DNA of 48,416 nt. It comes from a virus. The notes beneath the pieces were generated by a model. The model was given only the letters and a program-made list of their open reading frames with translations. It searched no databases and was not told the DNA's origin. The stretch is from the IMG/VR virus record IMGVR_UViG_3300036981_000509, positions 1-48,416 of that record. The stretch is one strand, 5' to 3'. A program made the translations under genes and the position numbers. Shown piece by piece: positions 6,686 to 45,684 of this stretch (positions are counted from its first letter, which is position 1; every line of letters starts with the position of its first letter).

Positions 6686-7792
6686 CTATAACAAACCAAC
6701 CAGGAATTTAGCCGGATTATTCCGGGCCTTATCGACGATCTTGGCGTAGACCTGCGTCGTCGTCACCGAGCTATGTCCCATCGCCCCCGAGATCGCCAGC
6801 AGGCTCGCGCCGGCCGCCAGGCTCTGGGTCGCAAACGTGTGCCGGAGCGCGTGGCAGGAAACACCGGCCTTCTTCGCCCCGATCTTCACCAGGTAGCCGT
6901 CCACCATCGCCCGCAGCCCGCGCGTGCTGATCCGCTCCGGCGGCCCACTCAGCGCCAGGAAGAGCGCCGGCGAGTCGGCGTGCATCAGCCGGCGCACCGC
7001 CAGCCACTTCTCCACTGTCAGCCGGGTCTCATCCGTCAACAGCACGCCCCGTCTTTTGTCGCCCTTCCCCAGCGCCGCCAGCGTCCCCTCCTCCCCGGCC
7101 TCCAGATCCACGTCCGCCAGGTCCAGCCGGCTGACCTCGCACACCCGCAGCCCGTGGATCGCCATCAACGCCAGGATGCACTTATCCCGGATCTGCGCCG
7201 CCGGCTCCCGTGCCGTCTCCGTCGCGGCAAACAACGCCTTCAGCGAGACCAGCGTCAGATACGCGATCCGCTCGGATTGCTCCGTCTTGTCGACCGGACT
7301 CTTCAAGCCATAGCTCACATTCGCCGGCAGGAATCCATGCGCGTGCGCCATCTGATAGAAGCGCCGGATGCTGGCCAGCTTCCGCCCCACCGACGAAACC
7401 TTGTATTGCTCCACCAGGTGCGACCGGTACGCCTTCAAACCATACGTCGTCACCTGCGCCGGCGTCAGTCCCTGCTCCACCAGCCAGAGCAGATGCTGCT
7501 TCATATCGCTCCGGTAGCTGATCAGCGTCAGCGGGCTCGCGCGGCCATCCCCCACATCCAACTTCATCCAGCCGTCGAACAACTCCAGGATCCCCTCAAT
7601 ATCCAGGCGGACCGGCTCCAGCGCGACCTGTTCTGACTCCTGACCCCTGCTCCCTGCCTCCTGAGTCCTAGTGGGCGCCTCCGCCCCGGCCGACACCACA
7701 ACCTCCCACTCGGATGATGGCGCCACCCGGAACTCGACATCCTCGACCGTTACCGTCTCCCGGCCCGTTACCGTTTCCCGCCTGGTGTACAT
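6686..7792 (-). CDS. Tyrosine recombinase, Xer/phage integrase type
   Basis: This DNA strand-exchange enzyme has 368 residues from the ATG at 7790-7792 (ribosome site GGGGGG); longer upstream frames lack support. A SAM-like core-binding domain lies at about 65-165. The catalytic residues are Arg216 (HGLRVCEV), Lys243 (GKGDKR), His314/Arg317 (CHALRHTF), His340 (MGHSS) and Tyr349 (QVYAKI). Residues about 38-58 (AEAPTRTQEAGSRGQESEQV) come from a heptamer repeat read in frame. It sits in the early operon, far from attP, and is the second recombinase here. It may resolve multimers or invert DNA; the attP-linked enzyme at 12788 is the likelier integrase. Confidence 0.88.
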   Translation of the reverse strand: MYTRRETVTGRETVTVEDVEFRVAPSSEWEVVVSAGAEAPTRTQEAGSRGQESEQVALEPVRLDIEGILELFDGWMKLDVGDGRASPLTLISYRSDMKQHLLWLVEQGLTPAQVTTYGLKAYRSHLVEQYKVSSVGRKLASIRRFYQMAHAHGFLPANVSYGLKSPVDKTEQSERIAYLTLVSLKALFAATETAREPAAQIRDKCILALMAIHGLRVCEVSRLDLADVDLEAGEEGTLAALGKGDKRRGVLLTDETRLTVEKWLAVRRLMHADSPALFLALSGPPERISTRGLRAMVDGYLVKIGAKKAGVSCHALRHTFATQSLAAGASLLAISGAMGHSSVTTTQVYAKIVDKARNNPAKFLVGLL

Positions 7793-12369: not shown

Positions 12370-12406
12370 CCAACAAAAAAAGCCGCCTCACGGCGACCCA
12401 TCCACT

Positions 12407-12430
12407 ACCTATAACTCAACTACTCGGAAG
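12407..12430 (+). promoter_or_regulatory. Dispersed dyad element, copy 3
   Basis: The sequence matches CCTATAA-N6-TACTCGG and lies between the lipoprotein stop and attP. It is one of two copies that follow a plus-strand gene rather than precede a minus-strand gene. Confidence 0.6.
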
Positions 12431-12554
12431 CACTTTACCAGTCTACCGTACCCGCCCGACAGTCCGAACAGCCCGCACGGATCCCAAAACCCCCATGTCC
12501 GCACGGCTACAATACCCGCCCACCCGTGCTGTCAGTTCTCCCCCATCCCTGACC

Positions 12555-19480: not shown

Positions 19481-19486
19481 CCTCAG

Positions 19487-19513
19487 CTCCTATAATGCAC
19501 GTACTCGGAACCC
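19487..19513 (+). promoter_or_regulatory. Dispersed dyad element, copy 4
   Basis: CCTATAA-N6-TACTCGG lies directly upstream of the Dit-like gene, between it and the tape measure gene. On the minus strand its TATAGGAG end falls at ribosome-site distance from the GTG start. Confidence 0.65.
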
Positions 19514-22819: not shown

Positions 22820-22829
22820 ACTGATCGCC

Positions 22830-22855
22830 TTCCTATAAACCCGGTACTAGGAAAT
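22830..22855 (+). promoter_or_regulatory. Dispersed dyad element, copy 5
   Basis: CCTATAA-N6-TACTAGG lies upstream of the adaptor-like gene and marks one side of the HNH cassette. Copy 6 (24089-24115) marks the other, in the same orientation. Confidence 0.65.
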
Positions 22856-24077: not shown

Positions 24078-24088
24078 CCCTCGATTCA

Positions 24089-24115
24089 CTTCCCATAAGG
24101 TGTCTACCAGGAAGC
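24089..24115 (+). promoter_or_regulatory. Dispersed dyad element, copy 6
   Basis: CCCATAA-N6-TACCAGG lies between the stop codons of the convergent HNH and tail-chaperone genes. It precedes no gene, so not every copy can be a promoter. Confidence 0.6.
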
Positions 24116-24125
24116 TGAGGTCGGC

Positions 24126-24506
24126 TTACCAGAATCCTACATCTGGGATCTTCATCGTCCTCGACACATACGGCCGTGGGTCCCGCCACTTCTGATTCGC
24201 CCACGCCCCCTCATCCCCGATCCCCGTCCCCTGACTCCTGACTCCTGTCCCCTGATCCCTGTCCCTTGACTCCTGCGCCAGCGCCGACGCCACGCTCATC
24301 TTGCCGTCGGCCACGAGCCCCTCGATCCGCCGCCCCAGCAGCAGCGTCGCCAGGTCTAACTGGTACGCCAGCCACGGATCAGAAAGACCCAGGATCGCGC
24401 TCGGCCTAGAGCTGTACGTCGTCGCCACCTGGTGCAACAGCCACAACTCCTCCCGGTTCCGGACGAAAGGGGGCAAGCTTCGCCGCCGGCTGCACCAGCC
24501 ACACAA
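24126..24506 (-). CDS. Tail assembly chaperone, frameshifted second part
   Basis: The reading frame gives up to 126 residues, but only the part after about residue 14 (VRNREELWLLHQVATTY...) is expected to be translated, as a fusion to the upstream chaperone through a ribosomal frameshift. The frame lies +1 relative to that gene, and no good ribosome site precedes it. The sequence (WLLHQVATTYSSRPSAILGLSDPWLAYQLDLATLLLG) fits the T extension of siphovirus gpG-GT pairs. A translated heptamer repeat (RDRDQGTGVRSQGTGIGDEG) lies near residues 82-100. Confidence 0.68.
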   Translation of the reverse strand: MCGWCSRRRSLPPFVRNREELWLLHQVATTYSSRPSAILGLSDPWLAYQLDLATLLLGRRIEGLVADGKMSVASALAQESRDRDQGTGVRSQGTGIGDEGAWANQKWRDPRPYVSRTMKIPDVGFW

Positions 24507-28589: not shown

Positions 28590-29807
28590 CTACTCTGCTG
28601 CCGCCAGCGTGCCCGCCACCGCCGCGTCCAAGTCATCCGGACTGCTCCACAGCCACACCAAGATTCGCTGCGTGATCCCGACTGCCAGATTCACCCCGGC
28701 AATCCCAGCGCGTCCCGTCCCGAGGCCGCCGGCATACTCGTCCATCTCCGGCCAGCTCTCACCGCCTAGCCACCCATGCAATTTATCGGCGAACGCGTCC
28801 GGCGGCAGCAGCACCGCCACCGAATAACAGAGGCAATTTGGGTGAATCGGCAGCGGGTCCTCCCCCTTCGGATAAATCCCCTCGCCATTCTCCCCGTTCG
28901 AGATCACATCGTCGCAAATATCGGTCTCCGGATGCGCCGGCGAGAGGTGAATTTTGATCTTCTCGATCCAGGGGATTCGGGCCAAAATCGCATCATTCGC
29001 CCGGTGCTGGGCGATCTGAACCTCGTTCCTGCTCAGCCGCAGCGCGTTGTACGCCACGCCCTGGCCGTCGCAATCATCCCCGGTATACAGCCCCGTCCGG
29101 TCCCCGCTCGCAATGTCCGATTTCGTCAACTTGTTCAACCGGCTCCGCGCCCACCGCGGACAATCCTGCCCCGCGCCCAGGAACGGCTCCAGCTTTTTCG
29201 CAATGTTCCAGGCGCTGTCCCCCTTCGCTATGCCCTCGTAGACGATCTTCCTGATCCCCTCCAGGCTCTCCTGGTCCAACCGCCAAATCCGCTGCGACAG
29301 CTTGAACCCATCGCCCCACACCCGATCCGCCGCCGCATCCAGCAACCCCTGCAACTGCGGCTCGAACACCACCCCGCCGCCAGCCTCGTTGAGGGCCTGC
29401 CCCCTGTCTCCTGTCCCCTGTCCCCTGACTCCTGACTCCTGACCCCTGCCCCCTGATCCCTGGAACGCCGCCGCGTGCAACACCGCCAGCGTCCCGAACG
29501 GCAGCGATCCCGCCTCCCAGCGCAGCGCCTCGAACAACCCCTTCCATTCAGTGAAGTGCTTCCGCCACGCCTGCGTCACCCCATCGATAGCCAGGTGGAT
29601 GCTCAGCGCGTCCCAGGCGCCTGTATCCTGACCGCTGACCCCTGACCCCTGATACGCCTCATCCAGCGCGTCCCGGCAATCCGCCAGCACCGCCCGCAGC
29701 ATCTCGTGCGTCCGCAGCACCAGGTACAACTGCAGGCGCATCAGCGCCGCCTGCTGCGCCTGCCACACCTTCGAGGCCGGAATATCCGCCAGCGTCCGCT
29801 CAGCCAC
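28590..29807 (-). CDS. Head morphogenesis protein (Mu gpF / SPP1 gp7-like)
   Basis: The protein has 405 residues and starts three bases after the portal stop. The C-terminal half has the family signature HPETDICDD...HPNCLCY, a His/Cys motif of phage Mu F-like minor head proteins. These act in DNA ejection and capsid assembly. Two short segments (residues 52-63 GSGVSGQDTG and 116-138 GSGGRGQESGVRGQGTGDRG) are translated heptamer repeats and probably form flexible loops. Confidence 0.8.
   Translation of the reverse strand: MAERTLADIPASKVWQAQQAALMRLQLYLVLRTHEMLRAVLADCRDALDEAYQGSGVSGQDTGAWDALSIHLAIDGVTQAWRKHFTEWKGLFEALRWEAGSLPFGTLAVLHAAAFQGSGGRGQESGVRGQGTGDRGQALNEAGGGVVFEPQLQGLLDAAADRVWGDGFKLSQRIWRLDQESLEGIRKIVYEGIAKGDSAWNIAKKLEPFLGAGQDCPRWARSRLNKLTKSDIASGDRTGLYTGDDCDGQGVAYNALRLSRNEVQIAQHRANDAILARIPWIEKIKIHLSPAHPETDICDDVISNGENGEGIYPKGEDPLPIHPNCLCYSVAVLLPPDAFADKLHGWLGGESWPEMDEYAGGLGTGRAGIAGVNLAVGITQRILVWLWSSPDDLDAAVAGTLAAAE
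29397..29462 (+). repeat. Heptamer repeat inside the MuF-like gene
   Basis: Runs of CCCCTGT/CTCCTGA-type heptamers, a short tandemly repeated repetitive sequence, are read in frame as GQESGVRGQGTGDRGQ. A shorter tract lies at 29625-29652. Related tracts are at 7630-7670, 24205-24280, 31590-31635 and 37262-37305. Confidence 0.75.
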
Positions 29808-34837: not shown

Positions 34838-34852
34838 CTTACCCCTCCATCG

Positions 34853-34879
34853 CTTCCCATAACGTCCCTACTCGGCAAC
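34853..34879 (+). promoter_or_regulatory. Dispersed dyad element, copy 9
   Basis: CCCATAA-N6-TACTCGG lies upstream of the lipoprotein gene, in the 111-bp gap after the capsid gene. Confidence 0.65.
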
Positions 34880-34946
34880 AGTAATCAGTTGTCAGTTCTC
34901 AGTCACGACAACCCCAGACTGAAAACTGACAACTGAAAACTGACAA
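34880..34946. repeat. Inverted AGTTGTCAGTT repeats after the capsid gene
   Basis: One copy of AGTTGTCAGTT and two opposite-strand copies (AACTGACAACT) can pair into an 11-bp or longer stem. Located just after the capsid stop, it may limit read-through, although no U-tract is present. Confidence 0.5.
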
Positions 34947-34948
34947 CT

Positions 34949-36655
34949 CTACGCAATCTTCGCGTAGCTTGCCTTCCCAGCCACCGGGCTCAGTGCCCCG
35001 TCATACTGCTCGGCATACCACTGATCCGCCGCCACCAGCAGCCGGTTCGTCCCGTAGGACGGGAACGGCCCCTTCAGCGCCATCGGCTGGTAGATGCGGT
35101 AGTGCACCACCTGCCGATTGCCGACCAACGCGTACGCGTCGCTGAACTCGGTGCTCTTGAACACCGGCAGCCCCTTGACCCGCCCGACATAGCCGTTGGC
35201 GTTCAGCGCCACATCATTGCGGCTGCCCGCCGCGGTGAACCCGTCCCAGTTGCCCAGCGCGTCCGAGGTGGTCGAGGAGACGAGCACGAAGGTCGGCTCG
35301 AAGTAGCGCTTCTCCACCTTGACCTTGGCGACGCCGATGTAGCTCACCAGGTCGATCAGCGGATCGGAGGCCGCCGTGTAGGTGCCGCCGGAGTTGGCTG
35401 CCACCTTCAACGCCTGCCCCAGCGCGTTGAACATCAGCGCCGCGTCGATCTCCCGGCGCAGTTCCGCCACCAGCATCGCCAGCGTGCGTGCCGTCGCATC
35501 CCAGCCCATCTGCGAGCGGGAGAACACGATCGCCTCGTTGGTGATCTGCGTGGCCAGCCGGTTCGCCTGGCAGTCGAGCGTGCCGTAGGCCAGCACCGTC
35601 TTCCCGCGCTGGATCTCGGTGTTCTCGCCCTCGCGCACCGCGTCGTAGTGGTAGTTGGCGTGCTGTTCGATCTCCGTCATGCTGCCGGTCGACAGACACA
35701 TGATCTTGCCGTCCAGGTAGTCGATGACGTAATCGGTGCCCTCAACCCAGTTCTGGTTGTTGCCCACCACCTCGATGACCGCGGTGCCCGGCTGAATCAT
35801 CTTGTGCGCCAGCGTCACCCACACGTCGAGATCGGCGGTGAAGTTCTCGTCGGTGATCGCCACGTGCTTGCCACTGACGTCCTGATAGTCCTCGTAGTAC
35901 ACGCGGGTCGGCGTCTGCTCGGTCACGTCCACGTCGAAGATGGAGGTGGCGATCAACGACGGCCACACCTCGGCGAGGATCGCCCGGCTCACGCTGTACG
36001 GCAGGTTCAGGTCCGAGGCCAGCTCGGTCTCCTGAAGTTGCGCCTCGCGCATCAGCGGCAACCGATTGAGCTGATCGAAACGCTCCAGCACCCGCAGCGC
36101 CATCACATCGTTGACCTTGGTCGACTCGCGCAGGTTGCGCCGGGTCGCGATGCCCCGCTTCACCATGCTCTCGGTAAACTCATGTGCGGCCCGAGCGAAC
36201 TCCGGCACGCCCGTCTCACGCTCCAGCACCGACCCCAGGATTTCGACGCCCCGGCCCATGCCGGCGAGCCTGGACGCAGCCACCAGCGCATCGTACCGCT
36301 TGCGCAGCCCGGCCGCCCGGCTCGCCACGTCCCCGGACTCCTGCACGCTCTCGCGTAGCTCCGTCGCGAACGTCTCGTTCAGCGTCTTGCCGTAGGGCAG
36401 ATCCTTGGTTGCCGCGGTCACCGCCTCAGCGATCGCCTTGACCTTAGCCTCGGCCTCAACCTGCTTCTTCGCCTGTGCCGCCTCGGTCAGCGCCTGCACC
36501 AGGTCCGCCGACTCCCCGACCCCCAACGCCGTCCGGATCTGCTTCTCCAGGTCCGTCCGCTGGGCCTCCGACATCTCCTTCACGCTCTCAGCCACGATCC
36601 CCTTGAACATCTCGGGATGCGCCTTGATCATCTCAGCCAACTGTTCCGCAGTCAT
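34949..36655 (-). CDS. Nested scaffold-capsid product (internal start)
   Basis: Inside the fusion gene the ATG at 36653-36655 (MTAEQLAEMIKAHPEMF) has a strong ribosome site, GGAGAGG, six bases upstream in the same frame. Translation from it would give 568 residues, scaffold plus capsid, without the protease. Lambda C/Nu3 is a known precedent for a nested scaffold start. This would supply far more capsid than protease. Confidence 0.55.
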   Translation of the reverse strand: MTAEQLAEMIKAHPEMFKGIVAESVKEMSEAQRTDLEKQIRTALGVGESADLVQALTEAAQAKKQVEAEAKVKAIAEAVTAATKDLPYGKTLNETFATELRESVQESGDVASRAAGLRKRYDALVAASRLAGMGRGVEILGSVLERETGVPEFARAAHEFTESMVKRGIATRRNLRESTKVNDVMALRVLERFDQLNRLPLMREAQLQETELASDLNLPYSVSRAILAEVWPSLIATSIFDVDVTEQTPTRVYYEDYQDVSGKHVAITDENFTADLDVWVTLAHKMIQPGTAVIEVVGNNQNWVEGTDYVIDYLDGKIMCLSTGSMTEIEQHANYHYDAVREGENTEIQRGKTVLAYGTLDCQANRLATQITNEAIVFSRSQMGWDATARTLAMLVAELRREIDAALMFNALGQALKVAANSGGTYTAASDPLIDLVSYIGVAKVKVEKRYFEPTFVLVSSTTSDALGNWDGFTAAGSRNDVALNANGYVGRVKGLPVFKSTEFSDAYALVGNRQVVHYRIYQPMALKGPFPSYGTNRLLVAADQWYAEQYDGALSPVAGKASYAKIA

Positions 36656-37615
36656 CTCATCCTCTCCTTGGCCCTGTCCGTGACCGGGCGGGGTGACCCC
36701 GCCTCTACTTTCCAGCAGGTCCGCCGCATTCTCGAACGACGGATCCCCGACCAGATCGGCCCCGGTGATCTGGCACCACGCCACATCCTCCACCGACCGG
36801 TCGCCTTCCTTCACCACCTTCGCCTCATAGAACCCCCTGACGGACCCGCCAGGCCGCACGCCGGACTCCATCAGCGTCGCCACATCCCGTCCCCGCGTGG
36901 TCAGGATCAACTCGCCCACCACGTCCACGCTGGCGCCGTCGAACGTCACCTCCGTCCACCGCACCACCGTCTCCAGGAACTGCGCGCCCCGCTTCCCCTT
37001 ATCGCCCGGATGTTCCACCTCGCCCGTCAGAATCTTCAAACGGCCCTGCCCGGCACTCTCGCGCAGATGATCGCGCCACTCCGCGACCGCCGCTTCGAGC
37101 ACGTGCGCAGGATAGCGCCGCCCGTTCCCATTGATCACGCCGGCCTGCATCAGCCCGGCGATCCTGATCCGCCGCGTCGCGCCGTTGCCCGCAGTCCCCT
37201 CTGCCAGCTCCGCCCGCGGCCCCACAGTCTCCTCCAGCCGGCGGCGCTGGCCTGGCGTCCTCTCCACTGACTCCTGCCCCCTAACCCCAGGCTCCTGCCC
37301 CCTGTCCTCCGCCCGCGCCTGATACACCAACTCCACTGGCTCCCACGCCTCCCGCGCCGCAAAGACAACCTTCCCGTCGGCGTCTTTCGTGAAAGGCACC
37401 CGGTAAAACTCATCCGGTCCCGCATCGCTCGACCACTCGGACACGATCAACGCATCCGAGAACGTTTCTACTAGGTAGTACTCCGCCATCCCCGGCGACT
37501 CTGGCGCCCAAAACGCATCCCGGAACGCCCGTCCCACCTCATCCGCCGCATACTCGAAGGACCCCTTCGTCATCTCCGCCAGCGGCCGGCTGACCATAAT
37601 CTGCTGCTTCGCCAT
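34949..37615 (-). CDS. Fused prohead protease, scaffold and major capsid protein
   Basis: The protein has 888 residues from the ATG at 37613-37615 (GGAGG five bases upstream). Residues 1-100 form a small N-terminal domain. A translated heptamer-repeat linker follows at 101-122 (AEDRGQEPGVRGQESVE). Residues about 148-300 resemble prohead proteases, with His202 (GEVEHPGD) and Ser258 (RPGGSVRGF). A Glu/Lys/Ala helical scaffold covers about 320-470. The C-terminal 350-400 residues look like an HK97-fold capsid protein. Such fusions mature by self-cleavage. An internal start at 36655 may give the scaffold-capsid part separately. Confidence 0.78.
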   Translation of the reverse strand: MAKQQIMVSRPLAEMTKGSFEYAADEVGRAFRDAFWAPESPGMAEYYLVETFSDALIVSEWSSDAGPDEFYRVPFTKDADGKVVFAAREAWEPVELVYQARAEDRGQEPGVRGQESVERTPGQRRRLEETVGPRAELAEGTAGNGATRRIRIAGLMQAGVINGNGRRYPAHVLEAAVAEWRDHLRESAGQGRLKILTGEVEHPGDKGKRGAQFLETVVRWTEVTFDGASVDVVGELILTTRGRDVATLMESGVRPGGSVRGFYEAKVVKEGDRSVEDVAWCQITGADLVGDPSFENAADLLESRGGVTPPGHGQGQGEDEMTAEQLAEMIKAHPEMFKGIVAESVKEMSEAQRTDLEKQIRTALGVGESADLVQALTEAAQAKKQVEAEAKVKAIAEAVTAATKDLPYGKTLNETFATELRESVQESGDVASRAAGLRKRYDALVAASRLAGMGRGVEILGSVLERETGVPEFARAAHEFTESMVKRGIATRRNLRESTKVNDVMALRVLERFDQLNRLPLMREAQLQETELASDLNLPYSVSRAILAEVWPSLIATSIFDVDVTEQTPTRVYYEDYQDVSGKHVAITDENFTADLDVWVTLAHKMIQPGTAVIEVVGNNQNWVEGTDYVIDYLDGKIMCLSTGSMTEIEQHANYHYDAVREGENTEIQRGKTVLAYGTLDCQANRLATQITNEAIVFSRSQMGWDATARTLAMLVAELRREIDAALMFNALGQALKVAANSGGTYTAASDPLIDLVSYIGVAKVKVEKRYFEPTFVLVSSTTSDALGNWDGFTAAGSRNDVALNANGYVGRVKGLPVFKSTEFSDAYALVGNRQVVHYRIYQPMALKGPFPSYGTNRLLVAADQWYAEQYDGALSPVAGKASYAKIA
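37262..37305 (+). repeat. Heptamer repeat inside the protease-capsid gene
   Basis: Short CCTGACTCC/TGCCCCCTGT-type repeats are translated in frame as RGQEPGVRGQES, at the junction between the N-terminal domain and the protease domain. Confidence 0.65.
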
Positions 37616-37633
37616 CACACCCTCCGTCCCCAC

Positions 37634-38144: not shown

Positions 38145-38168
38145 AGCGTCACCCTGCCACCGTGTAGA

Positions 38169-38195
38169 GTTCCGATAATTACGATACTAGGAACC
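38169..38195 (+). promoter_or_regulatory. Dispersed dyad element, copy 10
   Basis: CCGATAA-N6-TACTAGG lies in the gap between the reverse transcriptase stop and the SH3 gene, with GGTTCC/GGAACC-like ends. Confidence 0.65.
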
Positions 38196-38201
38196 CTGTT
38201 A

Positions 38202-39278
38202 TCATGCCGCCGCTGCGTGGGGTCCGCAGGCCGAAGCAACCCCGCCCACGGCCCGATCGCCAGATCCGCTTAACACTCGTCGTCTCAATCGATACGTGTT
38301 CGCGTGGCGCGCGTGTCCCAACCAGCTTTGTACTGAAGCATCCATCTCCTTGAACACCAACTCTCCGTGGATCAACCGCCAACGAAAAGCGCGTATCTTT
38401 CTGCGCATGCGCCTAATACTGCCTTCGCGCAGCAGACGATGCGTCGCCCAAAGGCGATAGCCCAGGAAGCTCACACCCTGCGCCGCCGCGAACACCTGTG
38501 TCTTGCTGTTCAACTGGAGCATCAGTCGTTCCGCGAGAAACTGCGCGATCCGCACTCGTGTCGCCTGCAATGCGTGCTTGTCCCGATCCACGACGACCGC
38601 GTCGTCCATGTAGCGGACGTACATCTCAACGCGCAACTGCTGCTTCACGAACACATCCAGCTCGTGCAGATAAACGTTAGCGCACAACTGGCTTGTCAGA
38701 TTGCCAATCGGCAGACCAAACTCACCGCCAGCAACCGGCCAACTCTCGATGATCTCCGTGATCAGTCCCAGCGTCCGGTCACACGCGATATGCCGGCGGA
38801 GCAGACTGAGCAAGATCGCGTGATTGACGCTTGGGAAGTAGCTGCGCACGTCCATTTTCAGCACGTAGACTTCATCGTCCCAACGCCGTGCGGCCCGTTG
38901 CAGGAACTGCGTCAGCCGATCAGCCCCCGCATGTGTACCCTTCCCGACGCGACACGCATAGCTGTCCCGCATGAACCGCGCCTCCCAGATCGGCTCGATC
39001 ACGCGGCACAGCGCATGGTGTACAACGCGGTCGCGAAACGGCAGTGCGGCGATCTGGCGCTCTTTCGGCTCATAGACCGTGAAAACGTTGTAGCGTCCAG
39101 TCTGGTATACGCCCTGCTGCAACTCAGCCCGAAGCGCCAGCAATTCCTCCTCCAGATTCGCCCCGAAGCGCAAGACATCCGCCGCGTAACGCTTACCACG
39201 CCGCGCCTTGAGATAGGCGGCATGGAGGTTGCCGAAATCCACAATCGACTCGAACAGATGCGTAAAAGTCTTCGCCAT
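38202..39278 (-). CDS. DGR reverse transcriptase
   Basis: The enzyme copies the template repeat into mutated cDNA. It has 358 residues from the ATG at 39276-39278; a longer upstream extension is possible. RT motifs are present: Asp143 (YVLKMDVRSYFPS), LPIGNLTSQ at 189-197 and the catalytic YMDD at 223-226, followed by VSFLGYRL. The LPIGNLTSQ form is usual in retron and diversity-generating RTs. Gene order target-Avd-TR-RT is the same as in Bordetella phage BPP-1. The last 20 residues are Ala/Gly-rich. Confidence 0.92.
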   Translation of the reverse strand: MAKTFTHLFESIVDFGNLHAAYLKARRGKRYAADVLRFGANLEEELLALRAELQQGVYQTGRYNVFTVYEPKERQIAALPFRDRVVHHALCRVIEPIWEARFMRDSYACRVGKGTHAGADRLTQFLQRAARRWDDEVYVLKMDVRSYFPSVNHAILLSLLRRHIACDRTLGLITEIIESWPVAGGEFGLPIGNLTSQLCANVYLHELDVFVKQQLRVEMYVRYMDDAVVVDRDKHALQATRVRIAQFLAERLMLQLNSKTQVFAAAQGVSFLGYRLWATHRLLREGSIRRMRRKIRAFRWRLIHGELVFKEMDASVQSWLGHARHANTYRLRRRVLSGSGDRAVGGVASACGPHAAAA

Positions 39279-39464
39279 AACAATTCCATTGCGGCACGGT
39301 CGGACGGTCGTCACGCTACTGGCCCAACCATGCCGCCAGTCCCCCGGTTGTGCGGGGTTTCATGTGTTCGCCTGGCCCAACGCGTGGACTCAGGCAGGAT
39401 GGTGGCCCCAAGGCGATAAGGCCCAGTTCGGTAGCCCGTGAGCGTCCGAAGTCTGACAGTATCG

Positions 39465-39576
39465 CTTGCCGACGCGAAAGCCGATATTGTTGTTCGCGTT
39501 TGCCGGTACGTTATTCAGGTTGAGCGCGAACACGCCCGCATTCGTTTCATTGTTCCAGTTTCCACCACGGAGCGCC
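39465..39576 (-). other. DGR template repeat (TR)
   Basis: This 112-bp segment aligns without gaps to 39993-40104 at the end of the target gene. Twelve of thirteen differences are at adenines of the TR coding (minus) strand, the hallmark of DGR mutagenesis. The TR is rich in AAC/AAT Asn codons, which adenine changes can turn into many residues. The 186 bp between TR and RT (39279-39464) hold no gene and probably belong to the TR RNA. Confidence 0.95.
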
Positions 39577-39591
39577 GCTACGGCCGCCACC

Positions 39592-39939
39592 CTATCGCGA
39601 ACTCGACGCCTGGCTCTTGATCCAGCCGCCAAGCAAACGACCAATTTCATTGATCCGCTCAGCCAGCGCGCCGTACTGCTTGATACTCAGCATGCGCAAG
39701 TCCTTCGCCAGCCGAATCAGCAAGCGCAACTTCTCAATCTCGACATCCATCTGTGCCAGGAGCGGCAAACGGTTGCCGCGTTGCTTGTTGGCTTGCACAA
39801 TCAGCTTGGCGATGTCGAGCAGACTGTTTTGAATCTGTTGCCCTAACATAAATTTCTGCGCCTTCGGGAAGCCGTTGATGATCGGGAAGGCATACAGGAT
39901 CAGATCGTAATGCTTCTGGTAAATCGTTAATTCATCCAT
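39592..39939 (-). CDS. avd: DGR accessory protein Avd
   Basis: The protein has 115 residues and is almost wholly helical (MDELTIYQKHYDLILYAFPIINGFPKAQKFMLGQQIQNSLLDIAKLIVQANKQRG, read in parts). This is the four-helix-bundle pattern of Avd and 23S-rRNA-intervening-sequence proteins. Avd binds the reverse transcriptase and template RNA and is needed for mutagenic homing. It lies between target gene and TR. Confidence 0.9.
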   Translation of the reverse strand: MDELTIYQKHYDLILYAFPIINGFPKAQKFMLGQQIQNSLLDIAKLIVQANKQRGNRLPLLAQMDVEIEKLRLLIRLAKDLRMLSIKQYGALAERINEIGRLLGGWIKSQASSSR

Positions 39940-39983
39940 ATTTTAGGCCGGTTTAACAGAGCGCCAGATCACAGATTGCAGAG

Positions 39984-41384
39984 CTACACGGCCTTGCCGA
40001 CGCGAAAGCCGAGATCGTAGATCGCGTGTGCCGGGACGTTATTCAGGGTGAGCGCGAACACGCCCGCACTCGTTCCATAGTTCCAGCCTCCACAACGGAG
40101 CGCCACTCGAATATGATTGGGCGCTGCCCCAGGATCGGTCGTGTCAAACCAATAACCGTCGTTACCGTAGGCCGCGGCGCCATTCCCATCGCTGGTAGCT
40201 GGAATGGCAAAACCCTTCAGTCGCGCATCGCTGTTGCGCAACGTGAGGACTTTGTTCACGGAGGTCATGCCGTTGGCGATATGGACGCCGGAGTCCACCA
40301 CGATCTCATACGGCCCGGCGGCTGGATTACCGCTGGCTGTAGTCAACACATTGCCCGTGTTGCTGGCGATGGTCAGTCGGCTGCCGGCGCCATCCATCAA
40401 ATAACAGGTCGCGCCTGCGCCGCCGCCGGCTGTGAAGAAGTCAGTCGTCCAGCTCTTGTCGCTATCCGTGAGGGTCTTTGTGCCCACGGCCGTCGAGCGG
40501 CCATAAGGGCTGGCCGCCAGGCTAACATCCAACGACGCCAGCACCAGCGCATGGCCCTGATGCCCCACCGTGCCCGTCGCCTCCGCGCCCAGGTCGTGCG
40601 TGGCATTGGCAATCGTCAGGTGCGTCGTATCCACCGCCGTGGCGATAACGTAGACGCCGTTGTAACCAACGGTGCCCGCGATTGTCGCGTGCTCGCCGGC
40701 GGCCAAGCCGTGCGCCGTGGCCGTCTCGACGCTGATCGTGGTCGCATTGCCGTCGATGGCCGCGATGGCGACCACCTCGTCAGCCGTCTGCATGTGGAGG
40801 CCCAGCGTCCACTCCCACATATTGCCGTTCAGATCGGCGGGGCCATTGGGATCGTGCAGCAGATTCCAGGTATTCGGCCCGGTCCCGGTCAGATTCGCAT
40901 ACCATCCCGCATTCCTGGCGTTGCACGCCAAATCCAACTGCGCCGTCTCGGTCGTGTAGGTCACATCCGCCGGTGGGTTGGTATTCCGGTTATTGCCGTG
41001 GGGGAGTAGACTCATTTTGTGTGAGAGCATGGCGAGGCTGGCCCACTCGAAGGCGGTCAGCAGATGGACGCCGGGGCCGTAGACGGCACACGCATTGCTG
41101 GCCGCCTTACGCGCGTTCCAGTATGAAATGTAGCGCCAGGGCGGCTTGGCGTAACTCGTGCGCGCCGCCACCGTCCCTGGGTCTGCCGAGTCCGCCACAT
41201 CCGGCTTGTCGCCGCCCGTGCCGTTGAAGGCGTTTGGCTGGCTGGCGATAAAACGGCTGCACCAAAAGCCGCCGAACGTCACGCCACTCACATCGGGATG
41301 CGTGAATGGCGCCACCCAGTACCATTCCGCTTGTTGTGCGCCCCCGCCGCGGAGCGCATGTCGGGAACCGCCGTAAAATGGCAT
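39984..41384 (-). CDS. DGR target protein (C-type-lectin / FGE-like fold)
   Basis: The protein has 466 residues. Residues 70-215 carry the formylglycine-enzyme/C-type-lectin pattern: WRYISYWNARKAA, LLTAFEWASLAML, NTWNLLHD, DLNGNMWEWTLGL. A beta-rich insert follows at about 222-290. The fold resumes, ending in the variable repeat (GWNYGTSAGVF...VPAHAIYDLGFRVGK). Diversified positions, compared with the Asn-rich TR product, include Gly, Tyr, Ser, Thr, His, Ile, Tyr, Asp and Leu. It probably binds receptors on the host surface. Confidence 0.9.
   Translation of the reverse strand: MPFYGGSRHALRGGGAQQAEWYWVAPFTHPDVSGVTFGGFWCSRFIASQPNAFNGTGGDKPDVADSADPGTVAARTSYAKPPWRYISYWNARKAASNACAVYGPGVHLLTAFEWASLAMLSHKMSLLPHGNNRNTNPPADVTYTTETAQLDLACNARNAGWYANLTGTGPNTWNLLHDPNGPADLNGNMWEWTLGLHMQTADEVVAIAAIDGNATTISVETATAHGLAAGEHATIAGTVGYNGVYVIATAVDTTHLTIANATHDLGAEATGTVGHQGHALVLASLDVSLAASPYGRSTAVGTKTLTDSDKSWTTDFFTAGGGAGATCYLMDGAGSRLTIASNTGNVLTTASGNPAAGPYEIVVDSGVHIANGMTSVNKVLTLRNSDARLKGFAIPATSDGNGAAAYGNDGYWFDTTDPGAAPNHIRVALRCGGWNYGTSAGVFALTLNNVPAHAIYDLGFRVGKAV
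39993..40104 (-). other. DGR variable repeat (VR)
   Basis: This is the last 112 bp of the target gene, ending seven bases before the TAG stop. It differs from TR at 13 sites, 12 at TR adenines. Its conserved 3' end (GGCTTTCGCGTCGGCAAG on the minus strand) is the likely start of mutagenic homing. Confidence 0.95.
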
Positions 41385-41734: not shown

Positions 41735-42607
41735 CTAGTCCTGCAAAATCCGCAGCCGGATACTAAACACCTCATCCGCGACCGGTGTGTACGCGTTGCG
41801 GGCCACAAGCACGCCATAGAGCGCAGTCACGGCTGCGCCACAGTCGAAGGCGATGTGGTTGATCAGTGTCGCCAGGCTCGCACAGTTACCGCCCGCCGCC
41901 GCCGTCGCATCGCCCACGTACCACGTCGCGAACTGGATGATGCCGACGAGGGTCAGTAGTTCGGCGTCGGTCGGCGTGAACACGGCATTGTCGTTGTCTG
42001 GCGTGATGGTCGTGTCGAAGAGCCACAATTCGAGCTGCGGCTTGGTCGTCTGGTTCGCTGAATCGACACAGTGGGCGCCGACGATCATACCTGTGCCGCC
42101 ATTAGCCCGCGCACAGCCGGTGAACGTAATCACCGCGGGTGCGCTGGTGGAGCCGCAGACGACGTCCCCCGCCGTGTATTGGTTCGTGTCGGCGGCCGGC
42201 CGCGTGACCGTGCCCGTCACAGTCACCGTGCGCCCACCAACTTCGCCCACGTGCGCCTCGCCGGCAACCAGGGCGGATAAACGCGTCACGTCAACATCCA
42301 GACCGTAGGCGGCGTCGCCCAGGGGCTGGATGAAGTTGGTGTTATCACTCACCAGCAGGGCTGCGCCGATGACAGGCGTCACGACGCCTTTGGCAATCGT
42401 ACCGCTGAGCGCCGCCGCGGCGGGTAACTCGGTGTCGGCGGTCACCGTACCCGTCACCGCAACTGAGGCGGCCAGCTTCTTGCTGATGCCGCGCAAATGC
42501 GCGTTGACCGTGCCGGGCGCGTCACCGTCAACGGCTGCATCGGCAATTGCACCCTGAGTTACATCGGCCCCGTTTTCCTGCACCACCCCAAATAATGCTT
42601 TTGACAT
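41735..42607 (-). CDS. First late-operon structural protein
   Basis: The protein has 290 residues from the ATG at 42605-42607, with GGAGGAG upstream. It is beta-rich and Gly/Thr/Ala-rich (TVTADTELPAAAALSGTIAKGVVTPVIGAALLVSDN...VTVTGTVTRPAADTNQYTAGDVVCG). The C-terminal half (AVFTPTDAELLTLVGIIQF...LYGVLVARNAYTPVADEVFSIRLRILQD) resembles proteins found next to phage DGR targets and tail fibres. It opens the leftward late operon under the promoter at 42637-42665. A fibre or neck role is inferred. Confidence 0.6.
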   Translation of the reverse strand: MSKALFGVVQENGADVTQGAIADAAVDGDAPGTVNAHLRGISKKLAASVAVTGTVTADTELPAAAALSGTIAKGVVTPVIGAALLVSDNTNFIQPLGDAAYGLDVDVTRLSALVAGEAHVGEVGGRTVTVTGTVTRPAADTNQYTAGDVVCGSTSAPAVITFTGCARANGGTGMIVGAHCVDSANQTTKPQLELWLFDTTITPDNDNAVFTPTDAELLTLVGIIQFATWYVGDATAAAGGNCASLATLINHIAFDCGAAVTALYGVLVARNAYTPVADEVFSIRLRILQD

Positions 42608-42621
42608 CTGACTCCTCCCCA

Positions 42622-42648
42622 CTACCCAGTACACCTATTATCGGAACC
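42622..42648 (-). promoter_or_regulatory. Dispersed dyad element, copy 11, in the late promoter
   Basis: On the minus strand this reads CCGATAA-N6-TACTGGG. Its GATAAT overlaps the -10 of the late promoter, so a protein bound here would control late transcription directly. Confidence 0.7.
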
Positions 42649-45641: not shown

Positions 45642-45656
45642 CTGATTTCGCCCTCG

Positions 45657-45684
45657 GTTCCTATAAGATTCCTACTCGGAACCG
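45657..45684 (+). promoter_or_regulatory. Dispersed dyad element, copy 12
   Basis: GGTTCCTATAAG...TACTCGGAACC is the most symmetrical copy, with 6-bp GGTTCC/GGAACC ends, CCTATAA and TACTCGG arms and the standard 6-bp spacer. Confidence 0.7.

What the first reader, a model, noticed from the sequence alone, without database searches (positions are those of the whole stretch)
38202..41384. Complete diversity-generating retroelement
Target gene, Avd, TR and RT lie in the order known from Bordetella phage BPP-1. TR and VR are both 112 bp, and 12 of 13 differences lie at TR adenines. The target has a C-type-lectin/FGE-like fold with an extra beta domain inserted. The system probably changes host-binding specificity.
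Basis: partly seen in the sequence, partly recalled or inferred. Interest (0 to 1): 0.7.

Follow-up and report, generated by a model that had tools for sequence, protein, structure and literature searches.

The report
Phage self-mutating retroelement with repeat-array tag
This phage carries a complete, apparently intact gene-mutating retroelement that rewrites the tip of one probable receptor-binding protein; the machine is of a known kind, but it lacks the DNA hairpin that its model relative uses to mark the target and has an evenly spaced CTG repeat array there instead.

Summary
Observation confirmed. The window is one 48,416-b temperate tailed-phage record (integrase, tape measure, Dit) with a full diversity-generating retroelement on the minus strand: target 41384-39984, Avd 39939-39592, TR 39576-39465, RT 39278-38202. 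TR and VR are 112 bp; 12 of 13 differences fall on TR adenines (P about 3e-7) and only 1 of 81 non-adenine positions differs, which points to recent retrohoming. The target is a TaqVP-like FGE-type C-type-lectin protein (Z 29 to PDB 5vf4). Of its two inserts, one lies where this family usually carries one; only residues about 204-276 are unique to this phage.

Both junctions are empty here, so the cassette has moved as a module. (2) The post-VR GRNA-loop hairpin that BPP-1 needs for efficient homing is missing in this phage and its close kin. Instead four TCTG units spaced 7-8 nt follow the target stop codon. Such CTG arrays follow VR, not TR, in many phage DGRs, far above chance. I found no published description. 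I propose that the array is a homing element; its function is untested.

The parts
39984..41384 (-). DGR target gene, 466 aa, TaqVP-like FGE-type C-type-lectin protein
   Evidence: A4 profile vs PDB 5vf4 6e-114; model Z 29.4 to 5vf4
40776..41384 (-). target residues 1-203, FGE/C-type-lectin core up to the NGNMWEW motif
   Evidence: 83% identical to L003 over 203 aa; FGE-sulfatase above cut-off in relatives
40557..40775 (-). target residues ~204-276, inserted segment unique to this phage among the loci found
   Evidence: absent from L003, L008, L009, L010; no match in phage records; low model confidence
40125..40556 (-). target residues ~277-420, second insert, shared with L008, L009, L010, missing in L003
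   Evidence: 51-59% identical in L008/L009/L010; its end aligns with the TaqVP insert region
39993..40104 (-). variable repeat (VR), C-terminus of the target
   Evidence: 12 of 13 differences at TR adenines
39957..39982 (-). four TCTG units spaced 7, 7 and 8 nt, starting 1 nt after the target stop codon; proposed homing element in place of the hairpin
   Evidence: same positions in L003 and, with one degenerate unit, in L009; VR-specific in 49 loci
39592..39939 (-). Avd, 115 aa
   Evidence: PF22296 1e-27; PHROG 'Avd protein of DGR' 3e-35; BPP-1 Avd 4dwl 1e-3
39465..39576 (-). template repeat (TR)
39279..39464 (-). TR-RT spacer, 186 nt, conserved non-coding RNA segment
   Evidence: aligned among window/L003/L009 with few changes, against 52-62% identity at RT third codon positions; fold z -2.1
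38202..39278 (-). DGR reverse transcriptase (IGNLTSQ and YMDD motifs)
   Evidence: translation; BPP-1 bRT 8ub7 4e-67; dN/dS 0.11-0.15 vs L003/L009
41392..41724 (-). small protein upstream of the target, carried with the cassette in L003 (68% identical)
41735..42634 (-). upstream protein of structural type; C-terminal part carried with the cassette in L003 (76% identical)
38168..38195 (-). copy of a genome-wide 28-nt quasi-palindrome at the right cassette border
42621..42648 (+). copy of the same 28-nt motif, inverted, at the left cassette border

Best explanation
A complete DGR of a temperate tailed phage. Shown by sequence: an intact RT and Avd under purifying selection, a TR, a conserved spacer, and one VR at the C-terminus of a TaqVP-like lectin-fold protein with adenine-restricted divergence. 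Inferred from BPP-1: the RT-Avd complex, bound to the spacer RNA, copies the TR RNA with random bases opposite adenines, and the cDNA replaces VR, rewriting up to about a dozen surface residues of a receptor-binding protein. Also inferred: the end of VR is marked here not by the BPP-1-type GRNA hairpin but by an array of four TCTG units at 7-8 nt spacing, which is absent after TR and so could give homing its direction. The cassette behaves as a module that has occupied different intergenic sites in related phages.
For: TR/VR adenine bias; only 1 of 81 non-A sites differs between TR and its own VR against 10-11 of 81 between TRs of related phages. RT/Avd families and solved relatives; dN/dS 0.11-0.15 for RT and about 0.1 for Avd. 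Target fold: TaqVP Z 29.4, TvpA 13.4, Mtd 12.6. Same cassette in L003 and L009 with their own adenine-biased VRs, 9 of 12 and 17 of 24. CTG array: run of three or more within 65 nt after VR in 21 of 49 non-redundant RT loci, in none of 49 after TR, and mean run 0.6 in shuffles; second set 42 of 83 post-target regions against 1 of 340 control gene ends. Hairpin not found in window, L003, L009 and L013, while the same scans find it in many relatives. Cassette sites.
Against: No reads, expression or activity data. One nearly invariant VR glycine (residue 431) is a cysteine here by a non-adenine change, which might weaken this protein copy. The function of the CTG array is unproven: it could serve avd translation or transcription instead. 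Heptamer CTG repeats also occur at other places in this phage. In the second set the array and the hairpin usually occur together (40 of 48 hairpin cases), so the array is not simply a substitute. The receptor-binding role is by analogy; the cassette sits among head genes here.
Confidence: 0.85

Rival explanations
1. The DGR is a decaying relic: once active, now fixed, with VR no longer changing.
For: Decay does happen in this family: L008 keeps target and Avd but has no RT and only 21 bp of TR, and L010 has no Avd or RT. The window RT has lost the longer N-terminal reading frame of its kin by one base.
Against: RT motifs intact and dN/dS 0.11-0.15; TR and VR are identical at 80 of 81 non-adenine sites although TRs of kin differ at 10-11, so the last rewriting was recent.
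Confidence: 0.1
2. The CTG array is not a homing element but a leader for avd (translation, transcript stability) or a stop-codon cluster.
For: It lies between the target stop and the avd start. Spacing of 7-8 nt would place TGA in several frames, and 57% of units read CTGA.
Against: TGA runs of three or more occur in 7 of 49 loci against 21 of 49 for CTG, and the window units are followed by C, T, G, T. In loci with both, the array sits between VR and the known homing hairpin.
Confidence: 0.3
3. The CTG array is one of the short heptamer tandem repeats scattered in this genome, placed here by chance.
For: Several CTG heptamer arrays elsewhere in the window (7633, 24231, 29397-29450, 34895-34926).
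Against: Across 49 loci and 484 kb only 28 array hits lie outside the post-VR stretch, about 0.0016 per 65-nt window on the same strand, against 21 of 49 loci at this place. Positions are identical in window and L003 although synonymous sites are near saturation.
Confidence: 0.05
4. The target is a head decoration or other structural protein rather than a tail receptor-binding protein, so variation serves particle attachment in general, not host tropism.
For: The cassette lies beside capsid genes here and between portal and head-morphogenesis genes in L003.
Against: In L009 it lies between tape measure and Dit; the named relatives VHML, VP58.5 and ACA1 have FGE-fold targets next to tail-fibre genes; the target C-terminus matches a PHROG tail family.
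Confidence: 0.2

Closest known systems
Thermus aquaticus prophage DGR / TaqVP (PDB 5vf4, PMC6328139)
   Same: Target family and fold over 283 residues, prophage setting, variable protein followed by avd and TR, VR at the extreme C-terminus
   Different: The window target has an additional segment at residues ~204-276; the TaqVP post-VR DNA was not examined here
Bordetella phage BPP-1 DGR (Mtd, Avd, bRT)
   Same: Gene order, RT (E 4e-67), Avd (weak), adenine-specific TR/VR, spacer between TR and RT, CLec target
   Different: BPP-1 has a post-VR hairpin with GAAA loop and only two YTG units; the window has no such hairpin and four TCTG units. Spacer is 186 nt here
Bacillus phage BalMu-1 DGR
   Same: SUMF1/FGE-type target, avd, RT order; three TCTG units after VR
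   Different: BalMu-1 also has a hairpin with GGTA loop after the array
IMG/VR relatives L003, L009, L013 (uncharacterised)
   Same: RT 62-78% identical, same hairpin-less post-VR arrangement
   Different: Different target inserts and, for L003 and L009, different genome positions

Membership tests
Diversity-generating retroelement | RT of the DGR clade with (I/V/L)GxxxSQ and YxDD | tested here: met
   IGNLTSQ and YMDD in translation; PHROG 1.5e-132; BPP-1 bRT 4e-67
Diversity-generating retroelement | TR/VR pair with 75% or more of mismatches facing TR adenines | tested here: met
   12 of 13, P 3.4e-7
Diversity-generating retroelement | VR at the C-terminus of a CLec-fold target | tested here: met
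   VR covers residues ~428-464 of 466; Z 29.4 to TaqVP
Diversity-generating retroelement | Avd accessory protein (present in most, not all) | tested here: met
   PF22296 1e-27
Diversity-generating retroelement | Adenine-mutagenic retrohoming observed | not testable with these tools
   No reads or experiments; low TR/VR divergence outside adenines is indirect support
BPP-1-type target site | GC-rich 7-10 bp hairpin with GRNA loop 4-34 bp after VR (PMC3240598) | tested here: not met
   No such hairpin in 75-80 nt after VR in window, L003, L009, L013; the same scans find it in many relatives
TaqVP-like target family | Sequence and structure match over the whole FGE-type CLec protein | tested here: met
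   Profile 6e-114 to 5vf4; single sequence 7e-9; Z 29.4

The most novel reading that the evidence does not exclude
The mark that tells a DGR which repeat to overwrite is, in a large group of phage DGRs, a periodic array of ATCTGA-like units (mode four CTG units, at most five, 7-8 nt apart) placed directly after VR and absent after TR; an oligomeric reader such as the pentameric Avd may count the units. In the clade of this window the array works alone, without the hairpin thought to be generally required.
Probability: 0.35. Interest if true: 0.75.

Novelty: new variant of a known kind. Interest (0 to 1): 0.5.

Why it matters
How DGR cDNA finds VR and never TR is poorly understood. A VR-only periodic array, conserved across divergent phages and standing without the hairpin here, is a concrete and easily mutated candidate for the missing address label. 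The three genome sites of one cassette show that phages can gain, move and lose (L008) a whole hypermutation module.

Tried and rejected
Second VR or TR in the record: none. Close relatives of the RT in GTDB genome contigs: none by two scans, so the host stays unknown. Known RNA family in the region: none. RNA:DNA pairing between a CAGA in the post-TR spacer and the TCTG array: the spacer motif stays GYCAGA-like whether array units are TCTG, ACTG or ATG-type, so no sign of co-variation (by eye). Stop-codon cassette as reason for the array: TGA runs are rarer than CTG runs. Residues 204-276 as a copy of another domain in this phage: no match; Foldseek gave only weak resemblances (Uba1, phage tail-tip domains) on a low-confidence part of the model. 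Array as strict substitute for the hairpin: association in set 1 (Fisher P 0.009, not corrected for kinship) but the two usually coexist in set 2. Hairpin scans with different rules disagree for a few loci (L027, L030, L050, L053, L056, L066, L072), so counts of hairpin-less loci are approximate.

Full report
What is there. The window is a single viral record of a temperate tailed phage: integrase, ParB-like protein, portal, head-morphogenesis, tape-measure and Dit genes on the minus strand. At 38202-41384 lies a complete diversity-generating retroelement. The target (466 aa) ends in a 112-bp VR; Avd (115 aa), a 112-bp TR, a 186-nt spacer and the RT follow. Twelve of 13 TR/VR differences fall on TR adenines (P 3.4e-7); the other is a G->T near the 5' end that turns a nearly invariant glycine (residue 431) into cysteine. 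Eleven adenine-bearing codons changed, ten of them with an amino-acid change.

Is it intact? The RT has IGNLTSQ and YMDD. Against two relatives (L003, L009; RT 77-78% identical) dN/dS is 0.11-0.15 for the RT and about 0.1 for Avd. TR and VR of the window differ at 1 of 81 non-adenine positions, while TRs of related phages differ from it at 10-11 of 81, so VR was rewritten from TR recently. The TR-RT spacer is clearly more conserved than third codon positions of the RT, as expected for the structured spacer RNA known from BPP-1 (PMC12875486). Activity itself cannot be tested here.

The target. A profile of 42 target homologues matches TaqVP, the variable protein of a Thermus aquaticus prophage DGR, at 6e-114. 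The AlphaFold model (mean pLDDT 72) aligns to TaqVP with Z 29.4, to TvpA 13.4, Mtd 12.6 and FGE enzymes about 12. Residues ~277-420 are shared with L008, L009 and L010, and their end aligns with TaqVP between the WEW motif and VR, where TaqVP has its inserts 2 and 3 (PMC6328139). L003 lacks the segment cleanly. Residues ~204-276 are peculiar to this phage and poorly modelled. So the target varies by whole inserted segments between core and VR as well as by adenine mutagenesis.

The cassette moves. In L003 it sits between the portal and head-morphogenesis genes, which are adjacent in the window. In L009 it sits between tape measure and Dit, also adjacent in the window, and the junction with Dit homology lies within about 25 bp of the RT end. 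In these comparisons homology stops at the RT C-terminus. L008 has no RT and only 21 bp of TR yet keeps Avd and target; L010 has the target alone. A 28-nt quasi-palindromic motif occurs more than a dozen times in the window, largely between genes, against 0.2 expected by chance, and flanks the cassette in inverted orientation at 42621-42648 and 38168-38195. It may be a regulatory site at which modules are exchanged; that is inference.

The target-site mark. In BPP-1 a GC-rich hairpin with a GRNA loop just after VR is needed for efficient homing, and such hairpins are described as nearly always present (PMC3240598). None is found in the 75-80 nt after VR in the window, L003, L009, L008 or L013, although the same scan finds it in many relatives, and it can be read in BPP-1, BalMu-1 and VHML. 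Instead four TCTG units with 7, 7 and 8 nt spacing begin 1 nt after the stop codon (39982-39957), at the same positions in L003 and, with one degenerate unit, in L009. In 49 non-redundant RT loci from IMG/VR, CTG occurs 138 times in the post-VR intergenic stretches against 54 +/- 7 in shuffles, and neighbouring CTGs are spaced 7 or 8 nt in 71 of 96 cases. Runs of three or more CTG units occur after VR in 21 of 49 loci and after TR in none; runs never exceed five CTG units (six if TTG is allowed). In a second set of 83 post-target stretches 42 have such a run (31 of them four or five units), against 1 of 340 control gene ends. Named phages show it too: BalMu-1 has three units before its hairpin, VHML and VP58.5 two, and BPP-1 two YTG units at the end of its VR, where its IMH lies. 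On an RT tree the loci scored hairpin-less cluster and need about six changes; the window group is a supported clade. Literature searches turned up the hairpin and IMH but no such array; the library is open-access only.

Reading. The best explanation is an ordinary phage DGR machine working on a TaqVP-like receptor-binding protein, with a variant target mark. The array lies between VR and the hairpin where both exist, is specific to VR, and has a narrow unit number, which fits a generalised IMH element read by something oligomeric; Avd, a pentamer in BPP-1 (own knowledge), is a candidate but nothing here tests it. A role in avd expression remains possible. That the array can do without the hairpin is suggested only by the hairpin-less clades; in most other loci both are present.

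Noticed in passing
34949-37633 (-): One 894-aa ORF matches a prohead protease (Peptidase_S77) at residues 156-302 and a Gp23-like major capsid protein at 556-840: an apparent protease-capsid fusion.
   Followed up: no
window, e.g. 1902-1929, 12404-12431, 19485-19512, 22828-22855, 24088-24115, 34852-34879, 38168-38195, 42621-42648, 45656-45683: Dispersed 28-nt quasi-palindrome rsTTCCnnGTAnnnnnnTTATnGGAAst, more than a dozen copies, mostly intergenic (0.2 expected), also in L003; possibly a phage operator or promoter.
   Followed up: partly
7633-7660, 24231-24260, 29397-29450, 34895-34935: Heptamer tandem repeats of the CTGACTC type, one inside the head-morphogenesis gene.
   Followed up: no
L008 5784-6318: Natural loss of RT and nearly all of TR, with target, Avd and a five-unit TCTG array kept.
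   Followed up: partly
L006 27-120 and 2068-2161: Another DGR in an IMG/VR contig, 11 of 12 TR/VR differences at adenines.
   Followed up: no
L052, L059, L060, L063 after VR: Instead of CTG units these DGRs seem to have ATG/CATG units at similar spacing before the hairpin; one locus has five in a row.
   Followed up: no
L071, L073, L081, L084: One TR with two VRs: double-target DGRs in relatives.
   Followed up: no
39300-39370 (-): A CCCC...GGGG hairpin in the TR-RT spacer of window, L003 and L009 is an insertion relative to most other relatives aligned.
   Followed up: no
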